Source: Modestobacter roseus | GTDB taxonomy: Bacteria; Actinomycetota; Actinomycetes; Mycobacteriales; Geodermatophilaceae | Assembly: GCF_007994135.1 (NCBI RefSeq) | Contig: NZ_VLKF01000001.1 | Location: 1,550,001-1,614,000 of the forward strand | DNA length: 64,000 nt | Direction of reading: 5' to 3' | Shown here: positions 28,125-32,520 of the stretch, piece after piece | Layout: every line of letters starts with the position of its first letter | Position numbering within the stretch: position 1 is the first letter of the stretch | Position numbers and translations under genes: made by a program | Notes under the pieces: generated by a model | Databases searched by the model: none | What the model saw: the letters and a program-made list of their open reading frames with translations, nothing else | What the model was told of the DNA's origin: nothing

Positions 28125-29033
28125 ATGAGCCAGATGGTCACCCTCGGCGCCCCGCGTGCGGCAGCGTCCCCGATGCCCGGCACCCGGGACGTCGGCCGCC
28201 TGCTGGTGCAGTGCGACGACCGACCCGGCGTCGTCGCCGCGGTCTCGACCTTCCTGGCCGAGCACGGGGCGAACATCATCGAGCTCGGCCAGTACTCCAC
28301 CGACCCGGAGGGCGGGCGCTTCTTCCAGCGCACCGTGTTCCACCTCGACGGGCTGTCCGCCCAGCAGGAGCGCCTCGAGGCGGAGTTCGCCGACGTCGCC
28401 GCCCGGTTCGGGCTGGACTGGTCGCTCACCCGGGCCGACGAGCCGAAGCGGGTGGGCATCATGGTCTCCCGCTACGACCACTGCCTGCTGGACCTGCTGT
28501 GGCGGGTCGGCCGCGGTGAGCTGGCGATGAACCCGGTCCTGGTGGTGAGCAACCACGCCGACCTCGCCGACGAGGTGCGCGCCTTCGGCGTCCCGTTCAT
28601 CCACATCCCGGTCACCAAGGACACCAAGGCCGAGGCGGAGGCCCGCCAGCTGGAGGTGCTGCGGGGCAACGTCGACCTGGTCGTCATGGCCCGCTACATG
28701 CAGATCCTCAGCAACACGTTCCTGGAGTCCGTCGGCTGCCCGGTGATCAACATCCACCACTCGTTCCTGCCGGCGTTCATGGGGGCCAACCCCTACGTGC
28801 AGGCGAAGTCCCGCGGCGTGAAGCTGATCGGCGCCACGGCGCACTACGCCACCGCGGACCTGGACGAGGGTCCGATCATCGAGCAGGACGTCACCCGGGT
28901 GTCGCACGCGCAGACCTCGGCCGAGCTGCAGCGCCGCGGCGCCGACGTCGAGCGCTCGGTGCTGGCCCGCGCGGTCACCTGGCACTGCGAGGACCGGGTG
29001 TTCCGGCACGGCAACGCCACCGTGGTGCTCTGA
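28125..29033 (+). CDS. purU: Formyltetrahydrofolate deformylase
   Basis: 302 residues. ACT domain at about 25-100 ([27 protein letters not shown]), then a formyl-transferase-like hydrolase domain with [30 protein letters not shown] and [13 protein letters not shown]. Hydrolyses 10-formyl-THF to formate and free THF. In most bacteria it feeds purine synthesis or balances C1 pools; here it heads folD, metF and ligM and would drain methyl-derived C1 as formate while recycling THF. ATG with CAGGAG about eight bases upstream. Overlaps folD (TGATG). Confidence 0.95.
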
Positions 29034-29077
29034 TGGACGGCAAGTTCATGGACGGCAAGTTCATGGACGGCAAAGCG
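29033..29077 (+). repeat. 3 x 15-bp tandem repeat at folD start
   Basis: ATGGACGGCAAGTTC at 29033-29047 and 29048-29062, then the diverged ATGGACGGCAAAGCG at 29063-29077. Each copy begins with an in-frame ATG, so three start codons exist; the third corresponds to the usual FolD N-terminus. Confidence 0.95.
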
Positions 29078-29965
29078 CTGGCGAAGCAGGTGCGTGAGCG
29101 GACGGCGGCCGAGGTCGCCGAGTTCACCGCCCGCACCGGCCGCCGTCCGGGGCTGGCCACCGTCCTGGTCGGCGACGACCCGGCGTCCGCGGTCTACGTG
29201 GCCAGCAAGCGCAAGCAGTGCGTCGCCGCCGGGATGACCGACCACCACCGGCTGCTGCCGGCGACGGCGTCCCAGGACGAGGTGGCCGAGGTGCTCACCG
29301 AGCTGGCCGCCGACCCCGAGGTCTCCGGGATCCTGCTGCAGCTGCCGCTGCCGGCCGGTCTGGACGCCGGGGCGCTGGTGCAGCTGATCCCCGCGGCCAA
29401 GGACGTCGACGGGCTGACCACGCTCAGCGCCGGACTCCTCGCCCAGGGGCGGCCCGGCCTCCGGCCGTGCACCCCGTCAGGGGTGATCGAGCTGCTCGAC
29501 GCCCACGACGTGCCGCTCGAGGGCGCCAACGCGGTGGTCATCGGCCGCTCCGAGCTGGTCGGCAAGCCGGTCGCCCAGCTGCTGCTGCAGCGCAACGCGA
29601 CGGTGACGATCTGCCACTCGCGCACCCGCGACCTCGCCGAGGTCTGCCGCCGCGCCGACGTCGTCGTCGCCGCTGCCGGCCGCGCCGGCCTGGTGCAGGG
29701 CGACTGGGTCAAGGAGGGCGCCGTGGTGGTCGACGTGGGCATCCACCGCACCGACGCCGGCCTGGTGGGCGACGTCGACACCGCGGCCGCCGCGGAGCGG
29801 GCCGCGCTGATCACCCCGGTACCCGGCGGCGTCGGCCCGATGACCATCGCGATGCTGCTGCACAACACGCTCGTCGCCGCCCGCGCCCAGTTCGACGCCC
29901 AGTTCGACGCCCAGTTCGACGCCCAGTTCGACGCCGGGGCCGACGCCGGGACCGGGGCGGGCTGA
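29033..29965 (+). CDS. folD: Methylenetetrahydrofolate dehydrogenase/cyclohydrolase
   Basis: 310 residues. Catalytic YVASKRKQC (Tyr and Lys), GILLQLPLP, PCTPSGVIELL, the NADP loop VIGRSELVGKP and TPVPGGVGPMT are all intact. Oxidises methylene-THF to methenyl-THF and hydrolyses it to 10-formyl-THF. Odd ends: the N-terminus is a triple [15 protein letters not shown] repeat, each with its own ATG, and the C-terminus carries (AQFD)4. Starts one base before the purU stop ends. In actinobacteria folD is often elsewhere, so this may be a dedicated second copy. Confidence 0.95.
   Translation: MDGKFMDGKFMDGKALAKQVRERTAAEVAEFTARTGRRPGLATVLVGDDPASAVYVASKRKQCVAAGMTDHHRLLPATASQDEVAEVLTELAADPEVSGILLQLPLPAGLDAGALVQLIPAAKDVDGLTTLSAGLLAQGRPGLRPCTPSGVIELLDAHDVPLEGANAVVIGRSELVGKPVAQLLLQRNATVTICHSRTRDLAEVCRRADVVVAAAGRAGLVQGDWVKEGAVVVDVGIHRTDAGLVGDVDTAAAAERAALITPVPGGVGPMTIAMLLHNTLVAARAQFDAQFDAQFDAQFDAGADAGTGAG
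29885..29932 (+). repeat. 4 x 12-bp tandem repeat at folD end
   Basis: GCCCAGTTCGAC repeated four times without change, encoding AQFD units just before the C-terminus, beyond the conserved FolD fold. Confidence 0.95.
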
Positions 29966-30168: not shown

Positions 30169-31035
30169 GTGAACAGGTCGCTTCCGCGCAACCCCGAGAC
30201 CCGCGCCGCCCTGCGCCGGACGTTCGAGACGCTCGGCTACGAGGTCATCCCGTTCAAGAAGACCGGGGACGACGTCCAGGAGCACGTGCCCACGGACGTC
30301 CGCCTGACCGTCACCGCCTCCCCGGCGAAGGGCATGGGGGCGACCGTCGAGCTGGCCGTCCGGCTGACCCAGGCCGGCTACACCGTGGCCCCGCACTTCA
30401 GCGCCCAGCAGATCCACGACCGGGCACACCTGACCGACGTCATCGCCCAGGTCCGCGAGGCCGGCATCACCGAGGTGTTCGTCGTCGGCGGTGACCCGAC
30501 CGACACCCCCACCGAGTTCAAGGACGCCCACGCGCTGCTGCTGGCGATGAAGGAGATCGGGCACCCGTTCACCGAGGTCGGCATCGGCGGCCACCCCGAG
30601 GGCCACCCGTCCGTCTCCGACGACGTGCTCTACGGCGCGCTCGCCGACAAGGCGCCCTTCGCCCAGCACATCACCACCCAGATCTGCTTCGACACCGGCA
30701 AGATCCTCGGCTGGGCCCGGGAGCTGCGCCGCCGCGGCGTCGACCTGCCGATCCACATCGGCATCCCGGGCGCGGTGACCCGGCAGAAGCTGCTGCGGGT
30801 CTCCAACGGCCTCGGTGTCGGGGAGTCGGCGAAGTTCCTCAAGAAGCAGCAGAACCTGCTGTGGCGCTTCTTCGTGCCCGGCGGCTACAGCCCCGACGGC
30901 ATCATCCGCGGCCTGGCCCCGGAGATCGGGGCGAGCGACCAGCGGATCGAGAAGTTCCACGTCTTCACCTTCAACGACCTGGCGCCGACCGAGGCGTGGC
31001 GGCAGCAGATGCTGTCCCGCCTCGCCGAGCAGTAG
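30169..31035 (+). CDS. metF: Methylenetetrahydrofolate reductase (short MetF type)
   Basis: 288 residues, TIM-barrel MTHFR family. Recognisable are PHFSAQQIHDRAHL, VFVVGGDPT, EVGIGGHPEGHP, FITTQICFD-like HITTQICFD and HIGIPGAV. Interconverts methylene-THF and methyl-THF. Beside ligM it would run toward methylene-THF, oxidising the methyl-THF made by demethylation, as MetF does in the Sphingobium ligM cluster. GTG with GAGGAAGG ten bases upstream. ligM starts 87 bases after its stop. Confidence 0.92.
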   Translation: MNRSLPRNPETRAALRRTFETLGYEVIPFKKTGDDVQEHVPTDVRLTVTASPAKGMGATVELAVRLTQAGYTVAPHFSAQQIHDRAHLTDVIAQVREAGITEVFVVGGDPTDTPTEFKDAHALLLAMKEIGHPFTEVGIGGHPEGHPSVSDDVLYGALADKAPFAQHITTQICFDTGKILGWARELRRRGVDLPIHIGIPGAVTRQKLLRVSNGLGVGESAKFLKKQQNLLWRFFVPGGYSPDGIIRGLAPEIGASDQRIEKFHVFTFNDLAPTEAWRQQMLSRLAEQ

Positions 31036-31122
31036 GCCGGCACCACCCGCACCAGTAGCACCGCACCAGCCCGCCGCCCTCCTGGGCGGCACCGGGAAGC
31101 CAACGACGACGAACGGACCCAG

Positions 31123-32520
31123 ATGAGCGCCAAGAACCTGCAGGAACTGCTGGACCAGAAGGGCAACACCGTCGAGCTGCTGCGCGACTCGCAGATCGGC
31201 GCCTACATCTACCCCGTGGTGCCGGCGGAGTTCACCAACTTCCGGCGTGAGGTGAAGTCCTGGCAGAACACCGCCGTGCTGTTCGACCAGTCCCACCACA
31301 TGTTCAACACCTACGTCCGCGGCGCGGACGCCCTCAAGCTGCTGACCGACACCGGCATCAACAGCACCGCGAACTTCCCGGTCAACAGCGCGAAGCAGTT
31401 CGTGCCGGTCTCCCCCGAGGGCGGCGTGATCGGTGACGGCATCCTCTTCCGGCTCGCCGAGGAGGAGTTCGTCTTCGTCGGCCGCGCGCCGGTGGCCAAC
31501 TGGCTGATGTTCCACGGCAGCAAGGGCTACGACGTCGAGCTGGAGAACGACCCCCGCTCCCCCTCGCGCCCCTACGGCAAGCAGGTGACCCGCAGCGTCT
31601 GGCGTTTCCAGATCCAGGGCCCGCGCGCCTGGGACGTCATCGAGAAGCTCAACGGCGGCCCGGTCGAGCAGCTCAAGTTCTTCCGGATGAGCACGATGAA
31701 CATCGCCGGCCACGAGGTCCGCACCCTGCGCCACGGCATGGCCGGCGCCCCGGGTCTGGAGATCTGGGGCCCGTACGAGACCTACGACCAGACCCGCGAG
31801 GCCATCCTCGAGGCCGGGAGCGAGTTCGGCATCGAGCCCTGCGGCTCCCGCGCCTACTCCAGCAACACGCTGGAGTCGGGCTGGATCCCCTCGCCGCTGC
31901 CCGCCGTCTACACCAGCGAGGGCCTGCGCGAGTACCGCGAGTGGCTGCCCGCCGACGGCTACGAGGCCACCAACGCCCTCGCCGGCAGCTACGTGTCGGA
32001 CAGCATCGAGGACTACTACCAGAACCCGTGGGAGCTGGGTTACGGCGGCTTCGTGAAGTTCGACCACGACTTCATCGGCCGCGACGCCCTGGAGGCGGTC
32101 GACAAGGAGAGCCAGCGCCGCAAGGTCACGCTGGAGTGGAACGCCGAGGACGTCGCCAAGCTGCTGGCCTCGCCGGTGGACAAGAACGGCCCCGGCTACC
32201 AGTTCTTCGACCTGCCCAACGCCAACTACGGCTCGTCGAGCTTCGACCGGGTCGAGGACGCCGACGGCAGCCTGCTGGGCCTGTCGATGTTCACCGGCTA
32301 CAGCTCCAACGAGCGCGTGGCGCTGTCCCTGGCGACCGTCGACCCGAGCGTCCCGCACGGCGCCGAGGTCCGGGTCATCTGGGGCGAGCCGGACGGCGGC
32401 AGCAAGAAGACCACCGTCGAGCCGCACGAGCAGTTCAGCGTGCGCGCCATCGTGAGCCCGGCGCCCTACACCGCCATGGCCCGCGAGAGCTACCAGCCGG
32501 GCTGGCGCACCGGCAGCTGA
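31123..32520 (+). CDS. ligM: Tetrahydrofolate-dependent vanillate/3-O-methylgallate O-demethylase
   Basis: 465 residues, GcvT (aminomethyltransferase) fold, essentially the length of Sphingobium LigM (471). Long stretches match what I recall of LigM, for example [79 protein letters not shown] and the C-terminal [18 protein letters not shown]. Transfers the methyl of an aromatic methoxyl to THF, giving the catechol and 5-methyl-THF. Its neighbours metF, folD and purU supply the rest of the C1 route. A strong terminator follows. Substrate (vanillate versus 3-O-methylgallate or syringate) is unresolved. Confidence 0.9.

What the first reader, a model, noticed from the sequence alone, without database searches (positions are those of the whole stretch)
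28125..32520. Complete THF-dependent aromatic O-demethylation and C1-disposal gene set in an actinobacterium
purU, folD, metF and ligM lie in order on one strand. LigM moves a methoxyl methyl to THF; MetF oxidises methyl-THF; FolD takes it to formyl-THF; PurU releases formate and regenerates THF. In the proteobacterial model (Sphingobium SYK-6, from memory) ligM sits with metF and a formyl-THF synthetase gene; here PurU replaces that last step, an energetically different exit. The set is self-contained and appears built for growth on methoxylated lignin aromatics.
Basis: partly seen in the sequence, partly recalled or inferred. Interest (0 to 1): 0.8.

Follow-up and report, generated by a model that had tools for sequence, protein, structure and literature searches.

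The report
LigM demethylation cluster ending in formate
An actinobacterium carries four neighbouring genes that look able to strip methyl groups from lignin-type aromatics and burn them to formate; the gene set is real, but it is a variant of a known pathway that many other actinobacteria share rather than a new system.

Summary
purU, folD, a divergent metF and ligM lie in order on the + strand at 28125-32520. LigM passes the sequence tests made: 880.9 bits against the LigM model (cut-off 580), grouping with SYK-6 LigM rather than GcvT, and the recalled active-site residues. MetF is not the housekeeping type; its nearest solved fold is SYK-6 MTHFR, reported to oxidise methyl-THF (PMC12585457).

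No formyl-THF synthetase was found in the genome, a Modestobacter relative, so PurU is the likely exit to formate. Of 80 actinobacterial LigM loci, 30 have purU nearby and 1 has formyl-THF synthetase. LigM, metF and purU also sit together on an Agrobacterium plasmid. Ring cleavage is encoded elsewhere. A second metF-purU-folD set with three further LigM-family genes sits at about 1.26-1.28 Mb.

Substrate, direction of flux and growth on lignin aromatics are inferred. A known kind with a different exit enzyme; interest is modest.

The parts
28125..29033 (+). purU, formyl-THF deformylase (ACT plus formyl-transferase domains, 302 aa)
   Evidence: TIGR00655 377.1 bits vs cut-off 285.95; PF00551 and PF01842
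29033..29965 (+). folD, methylene-THF dehydrogenase/cyclohydrolase (310 aa); 51% identical to the genome's FolD at C1:2970325, 72% to the second-cluster FolD
   Evidence: NF010783 353.6 bits vs cut-off 333; identities; genome copies. MDGKF repeats at the start and a 12-bp tandem near the end
30169..31035 (+). metF-like, divergent MTHFR (288 aa), proposed methyl-THF oxidase
   Evidence: PF02219 41.5 bits; 7xg9 (SYK-6 MTHFR) 118 bits; predicted model (pLDDT 86.1) best matched by SYK-6 MTHFR 7xlf, TM 0.80
31123..32520 (+). ligM, THF-dependent vanillate/3-O-methylgallate-type O-demethylase (465 aa)
   Evidence: NF047885 880.9 bits vs cut-off 580; LigM structures 5x1i/5tl4 707 bits over 460 residues; tree; residues
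32538..32583 (.). near-perfect hairpin (22-nt arms, 95%) just after ligM, candidate terminator
   Evidence: not scored by the terminator scan, which asks for a T-run, so inferred
32606..32668 (.). second hairpin (25-nt arms, 96%)
29966..30168 (+). 203-bp gap between folD and metF; room for a second promoter
   Evidence: sequence read; no sigma-70-type hit

Best explanation
The four genes encode a THF-linked catabolic route for aromatic methoxyl groups. LigM moves the methyl of a methoxylated aromatic acid (most likely vanillate and/or 3-O-methylgallate) to THF. The divergent MetF runs in the oxidising direction, methyl-THF to methylene-THF. FolD carries this to formyl-THF. PurU hydrolyses it to formate and free THF, which makes the exit irreversible and returns THF to LigM. 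The demethylated ring goes to ring-cleavage enzymes encoded elsewhere in the genome. Shown by sequence here: gene identities, order, residue conservation, fold class of MetF, and no formyl-THF synthetase hit in the genome. Inferred: substrate, direction of MetF, co-expression and formate release. It is a variant of the SYK-6 LigM pathway whose last step resembles that of chloromethane utilisers.
For: LigM: model score and structures; 100%-supported group with SYK-6 LigM, apart from paralogues and the GcvT outgroup; SYK-6 positions 29, 31, 57, 59, 60, 122, 215, 245, 247 and 256 identical (that 29/31/60/122/247 are the working residues is recalled). MetF: nearest solved fold is SYK-6 MTHFR, TM 0.79-0.80, against 0.58-0.71 for the other MTHFR chains among the 50 rows listed. 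That enzyme is reported to oxidise 5-CH3-THF (PMC12585457, a meeting abstract, whole text). Residues aligned with Glu28, Asp120 and Gln183 are kept in 40 of 40 window-type rows (roles from PMC11094777 passages; mapping by motif, recalled). A canonical MTHFR exists elsewhere at 314 bits. PurU/FolD: no formyl-THF synthetase match in the 99.83%-complete genome (control 4 of 14 genomes). A FolD at C1:2970325 could serve general needs. [quoted passage not shown] Linkage: metF in 49, purU in 30 and folD in 23 of 80 actinobacterial LigM loci. Downstream: PcaH above cut-off, a second Dioxygenase_C hit beside it, and a LigB-type extradiol enzyme above three subfamily cut-offs. A formate dehydrogenase-like gene scores 570.7 bits, under its cut-off of 666.
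Against: No activity, transcript or growth data. The folD-metF gap is 203 bp. 30 of 80 LigM loci have none of the three partners within the fetched flanks, 10 of these on stretches under 21 kb. PurU linkage does not track absence of formyl-THF synthetase: 10 of 17 genomes with it and 14 of 33 without it have purU linked, Fisher p 0.37 (one of the 17, G086, has only short weak pieces). The window MetF is only 28% identical to SYK-6 MTHFR and lies in a different group of the tree. Of seven plasmid regions read, four did not show a listed purU near the demethylase (one of these has no annotation). None of 12 congeners read at the SNF2 neighbour has the cluster there, so it is not a fixed trait of the genus.
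Confidence: 0.8

Rival explanations
1. Same chemistry, other substrate: the LigM-type enzyme demethylates a methoxy-aromatic other than vanillate or methylgallate, such as an ortho-methoxybenzoate, and the cluster is not mainly for lignin.
For: Other THF-dependent demethylases act on dicamba, and one of these, Dmt06, is 100% identical to an actinobacterial protein (PMC9404685, passages; its closeness to the window LigM was not tested). The wider family also includes syringate and berberine enzymes (PMC5547118, passages). No substrate-specific gene sits in the set.
Against: Of eleven LigM positions checked, ten are unchanged from SYK-6 LigM; only 248 differs. The LigM model score is far above its cut-off. 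Paralogues differ mostly at 29, 31, 122 and 245.
Confidence: 0.12
2. The cluster mainly supplies one-carbon units (methylene- and formyl-THF) for biosynthesis, as LigM and MTHFR do in SYK-6; PurU is an overflow valve.
For: SYK-6 LigM-MTHFR is described as a C1 supply route replacing glycine cleavage (PMC12585457).
Against: This genome has a GcvT (289 bits), a canonical MTHFR and another FolD, so biosynthesis need not depend on it. PurU destroys formyl-THF.
Confidence: 0.06
3. Relic or chance neighbourhood: functional genes, but not one working pathway.
For: Patchy distribution: 7 of 22 same-genus genomes carry a LigM hit (5 of the 22 are only 67-80% complete), and none of 12 congeners read has the set at this neighbour.
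Against: The same partners recur near ligM in many actinobacterial loci and on some plasmids. The frames are intact with strong coding composition.
Confidence: 0.02

Closest known systems
Sphingobium SYK-6 ligM-metF-ligH operon
   Same: LigM of the same clade; an MTHFR of the same fold encoded next to ligM and reported to run as an oxidase
   Different: Formyl-THF synthetase LigH was not found in this genome; PurU with a local FolD stands in its place. The MetF is of another lineage, 28% identical. SYK-6 is under the MarR-type DesR; here the nearest regulator seen is an IclR-type gene 3.6 kb from ligM.
Chloromethane utilisation (cmu): MetF2, FolD, PurU
   Same: Methyl-THF thought to be oxidised to formate by a divergent MetF (26% identical to the chromosomal one in CM4), FolD and PurU (PMC4949252, passages); here the housekeeping and window MetF share 24%
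   Different: The methyl group enters through the Cmu corrinoid methyltransferases (recalled), not a LigM-type demethylase
LigM-family loci with purU on plasmids: Rhodococcus opacus pRop44186_a, Agrobacterium tumefaciens pAt, Novosphingobium pentaromativorans pLA3
   Same: A LigM-family demethylase with metF and purU, plus folD in two of the three
   Different: Dioxygenase, aldolase, fdhD or folate-synthesis genes lie alongside and gene orders differ. The pLA3 demethylase is only 53% identical to the window LigM. These are three of seven regions read, out of 80 plasmid records with a match.
Actinobacterial LigM loci, for example Amycolatopsis, Streptomyces, Klenkia
   Same: ligM with metF, purU and folD within the fetched flanks in 14 of 80 loci
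   Different: There the other genes are mostly on the opposite strand to ligM or several kb away, often with a DesA-like gene; here the four are tight and on one strand

Membership tests
LigM vanillate/3-O-methylgallate O-demethylase | Scores above the curated LigM equivalog cut-off | tested here: met
   880.9 vs 580 bits
LigM vanillate/3-O-methylgallate O-demethylase | Groups with characterised LigM, not with GcvT | tested here: met
   100%-supported 32-row group holding SYK-6 LigM and the window, GcvT as outgroup (quick tree; the tool warned of long branches, the outgroup's above all)
LigM vanillate/3-O-methylgallate O-demethylase | Active-site residues of SYK-6 LigM (set recalled) | tested here: met
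   Y29, Y31, H60, R122 and Y247 all present
LigM vanillate/3-O-methylgallate O-demethylase | THF-dependent demethylation of vanillate or 3-O-methylgallate | not testable with these tools
   needs enzyme assay
SYK-6-type ligM-metF-ligH C1 pathway | Formyl-THF synthetase (LigH) in the set | tested here: not met
   no PF01268 match in the whole genome
SYK-6-type ligM-metF-ligH C1 pathway | MTHFR homologue of the SYK-6 kind | tested here: inconclusive
   same fold and nearest solved structure, but 28% identical and a different tree group
MTHFR (MetF) family | Residues aligned with E. coli Glu28, Asp120, Gln183 | tested here: met
   kept in the window and in 40 of 40 window-type rows; mapping by motif, recalled
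MTHFR (MetF) family | NCBIfam metF equivalog cut-off (housekeeping type) | tested here: not met
   53.6 vs 293.7 bits
PurU formyl-THF deformylase | ACT plus formyl-transferase domains and equivalog score | tested here: met
One operon | Single transcript across the four genes | not testable with these tools
   1-base overlap, then gaps of 203 and 87 bp

The most novel reading that the evidence does not exclude
LigM-type demethylases across actinobacteria work with a distinct catabolic class of MTHFR that runs as a methyl-THF oxidase. This class comes in at least two lineages that share loss of the Arg of the RGD motif and a two-residue deletion against the housekeeping enzyme, and PurU, not formyl-THF synthetase, is its usual irreversible exit. 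This genome has two such sets, the second serving three LigM-family demethylases with altered substrate pockets and so probably new substrates.
Probability: 0.35. Interest if true: 0.5.

Novelty: new variant of a known kind. Interest (0 to 1): 0.32.

Why it matters
If right, methoxyl carbon from lignin aromatics leaves many actinobacteria as formate through an irreversible hydrolase that yields no ATP, unlike the SYK-6 model with formyl-THF synthetase. That affects carbon and energy budgets for lignin conversion and offers a demethylation route without formaldehyde or oxygen. It also gives a sequence-defined set of MTHFRs in which to ask what makes this enzyme run backwards.

Tried and rejected
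Horizontal origin of the window ligM: the first tree put it with Nonomuraea, Frankia, Klenkia and others rather than with the congeners, but a tree that holds it with the Geodermatophilaceae-type rows was not rejected (p 0.505). No transfer is claimed.

PurU as a compensation for missing formyl-THF synthetase across genomes: no association (10 of 17 vs 14 of 33, p 0.37).

Clean empty site in congeners: the SNF2 neighbour has a match in 18 other same-genus genomes. I read 12 of the 18; none has the cluster within about 12 kb on that side. The other flank (DHPS) was not found there either, and SelO in only 3, so no clean empty site is shown.

Riboswitch or other known RNA at 25000-42000: none at the gathering scores. 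Sigma-70 promoters: none; terminator-like sites 2 against a shuffle mean of 1.2.

GcvT, sarcosine or dimethylglycine enzyme reading of ligM: rejected by scores and tree.

Print: in the held library no paper has ligM, purU, folD and vanillate together. Yu et al. 2025 (Commun. Biol. 8:323), said in PMC12585457 to report similar gene sets in many bacteria, is not held, so novelty of the LigM-PurU pairing is unproven.

LigM rows were told from paralogues by more than 60% identity to the window LigM, which favours conservation. The tree uses 30 of 93 LigM rows and 20 of 42 paralogue rows. All trees are quick ones without bootstrap. The housekeeping MetF comparison rests on one sequence. The alignment behind the MetF model includes six rows of other MetF lineages, five of them of the SYK-6 kind.
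Full report
What is there. The window is G000:C1:1550001-1614000 of a 4.5-Mb genome. At 28125-32520 four + strand genes follow one another: purU, folD, metF-like and ligM, each with strong coding composition. Curated models name purU, folD and ligM above their cut-offs. The third gene passes only the broad Pfam MTHFR model and fails the standard metF equivalog. purU and folD overlap by one base; folD-metF is 203 bp and metF-ligM is 87 bp. Two near-perfect hairpins follow ligM at 32538-32583 and 32606-32668, a plausible end of the unit. 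The neighbours are an SNF2-type helicase on the left, with phenylacetate genes beyond it, and a dihydropteroate synthase facing from the right at 33030-33902.

The organism. Contig positions of LigM hits in unnamed same-genus genomes coincide with those of named records, Modestobacter excelsi and M. muralis. Same-family hits coincide with Blastococcus records. I therefore place the genome in or beside Modestobacter (Geodermatophilaceae); this is inference from matching coordinates.

LigM. LigM structures 5x1i and 5tl4 match over 460 residues at 707 bits. In a tree of 56 rows the window protein falls in a 100%-supported group of 32 rows with SYK-6 LigM, away from DesA-like paralogues and with the genome's own GcvT as outgroup (quick method, with warnings of long branches). 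Of eleven SYK-6 positions checked, the window differs only at 248. Of 93 LigM rows from the fetched loci, all keep 31, 59, 60, 122, 245, 247 and 256, and 91 keep Tyr29. The 42 paralogue rows differ mostly at 29, 31, 122 and 245. That Tyr29, Tyr31, His60, Arg122 and Tyr247 are the working residues is recalled.

MetF. It shares 24% with the genome's canonical MTHFR. A predicted model (mean pLDDT 86.1) has SYK-6 MTHFR, including its methyl-THF complex, as its closest solved structures (TM 0.79-0.80); the other MTHFR chains among the 50 rows listed score 0.58-0.71. SYK-6 MTHFR is reported to oxidise 5-methyl-THF (PMC12585457, a meeting abstract, whole text). The residues aligned by motif with E. 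coli Glu28, Asp120 and Gln183 are kept in 40 of 40 window-type rows. The Arg of the RGD motif, as seen in the one housekeeping sequence compared, is Gly in 40 of 40 window-type rows and in 10 of 11 SYK-6-type rows; the eleventh, SYK-6 itself, has Ala. A two-residue deletion against that same sequence is shared by all 54 rows. Roles of Glu28, Asp120 and Gln183 come from PMC11094777 (passages). In the MetF tree, SYK-6 MTHFR sits with LigM-linked MetFs of Micrococcaceae, Microbacteriaceae and Kineosporiaceae (97*), while the window sits in a group of 14 rows (99*), Geodermatophilaceae but for one Nocardioides; the two Klenkia rows, also Geodermatophilaceae, lie elsewhere. LigM has thus been paired with at least two MetF lineages. 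The quick method and long branches limit this.

Exit to formate. No formyl-THF synthetase was found in the genome (PF01268; the same search rang in 4 of 14 control genomes). It has three FolDs. Formyl-transferase matches are four: the window PurU, a second PurU 67% identical to it, and two that I read by eye as PurN- and Fmt-type. In SYK-6 the operon is ligM-metF-ligH (PMC6888825, passages). [quoted passage not shown] deletion of metF2 abolished growth, and the other accessory deletions, purU and folD among them, cost 18-47% fitness (PMC4949252, passages). The window combines the first two SYK-6 steps with the chloromethane-type exit. A formate dehydrogenase-like gene scores 570.7 bits, below its cut-off of 666.

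How common it is. In 80 actinobacterial LigM loci (best 80 of 590 confirmed, up to 10 kb each side), all three partners occur in 14, metF plus purU in 15, metF plus folD in 9, metF alone in 11, purU alone in 1 and none in 30; 10 of the last are on stretches under 21 kb. Formyl-THF synthetase lies near ligM in 1 of 80, tested with one actinobacterial query. Genome-wide it exceeds the cut-off in 17 of 50 LigM genomes tried, out of the 80; one of the 17 has only short weak pieces. It does not associate with purU linkage. On plasmids, 80 records hold a LigM-family match. I read seven regions: Rhodococcus opacus, Agrobacterium tumefaciens and Novosphingobium pentaromativorans have metF and purU beside the demethylase; Agrobacterium fabrum and Rhizobium show metF but no listed purU; Mesorhizobium shows neither; and Novosphingobium RL4 has no annotation there. 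The plasmid gene tables are incomplete by the tool's own account.

Second set in the same genome. At C1:1.26-1.28 Mb, in 34 kb of 71.6% GC (the window is 75.7%), lie three more LigM/DesA-family genes. All score below both the LigM and DesA cut-offs. With them are a second metF (70% to the window copy), purU (67%) and folD (72%), a sugar-type ABC transporter, an FAD ring hydroxylase, a LysR regulator and an amidohydrolase. Two of the three differ from LigM at 31, 59, 122 and 245, the third at 29, 31 and 122, so other substrates are likely.

Downstream. PcaH passes its model, with a second intradiol domain hit beside it. A LigB-type extradiol dioxygenase passes three subfamily models, though not the full-length protocatechuate 4,5-dioxygenase or gallate dioxygenase models. 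Demethylated rings could therefore be opened, but by genes far from the window.

Distribution in the genus. 7 of 22 same-genus genomes have a LigM hit, each with a second, DesA-like hit close by; 5 of the 22 are only 67-80% complete. None of the 12 congeners read at the SNF2 neighbour has the cluster there.

Verdict. The cluster is real and its best reading is demethylation of methoxy-aromatics with oxidation of the methyl to formate. It is a variant of a known pathway assembled from known parts, and widespread in actinobacteria. The parts worth following are the divergent MetF class and the second set with three unassigned demethylases.

Noticed in passing
G000:C1 about 1261860-1277830 (L097, L098, L003-L005, L009): A second C1-exit set (metF, purU, folD) with three LigM/DesA-family genes that score below both curated cut-offs and have altered pocket residues; ABC transporter, FAD hydroxylase, LysR and amidohydrolase nearby; lower GC than the window.
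   Followed up: partly
window 36157-39024 +: IclR-type regulator followed by a MetE C-domain-like protein (PRK09121 227 bits, below its 392 cut-off). A similar pair sits in the Novosphingobium pLA3 demethylase cluster.
   Followed up: no
window 29033-29080 and 29884-29943: folD carries short in-frame tandem repeats at both ends (MDGKF at the start, QFDA at the end).
   Followed up: no
window 18766-24057: Phenylacetate degradation genes (AMP-ligase-type, PaaA/C-type, PaaB, PaaE-type) close to the cluster.
   Followed up: no
window 34121-36323 -: A frame matching P450 models only over its C-terminal part (about residues 275-455) overlaps a 2Fe-2S reductase-like gene.
   Followed up: no
L146 (Rhodococcus opacus pRop44186_a 484236-501624): Demethylase genes beside pabB, a Mur-ligase family gene and fdhD, as if folate supply and formate oxidation travel with them on a mobilizable plasmid.
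   Followed up: no
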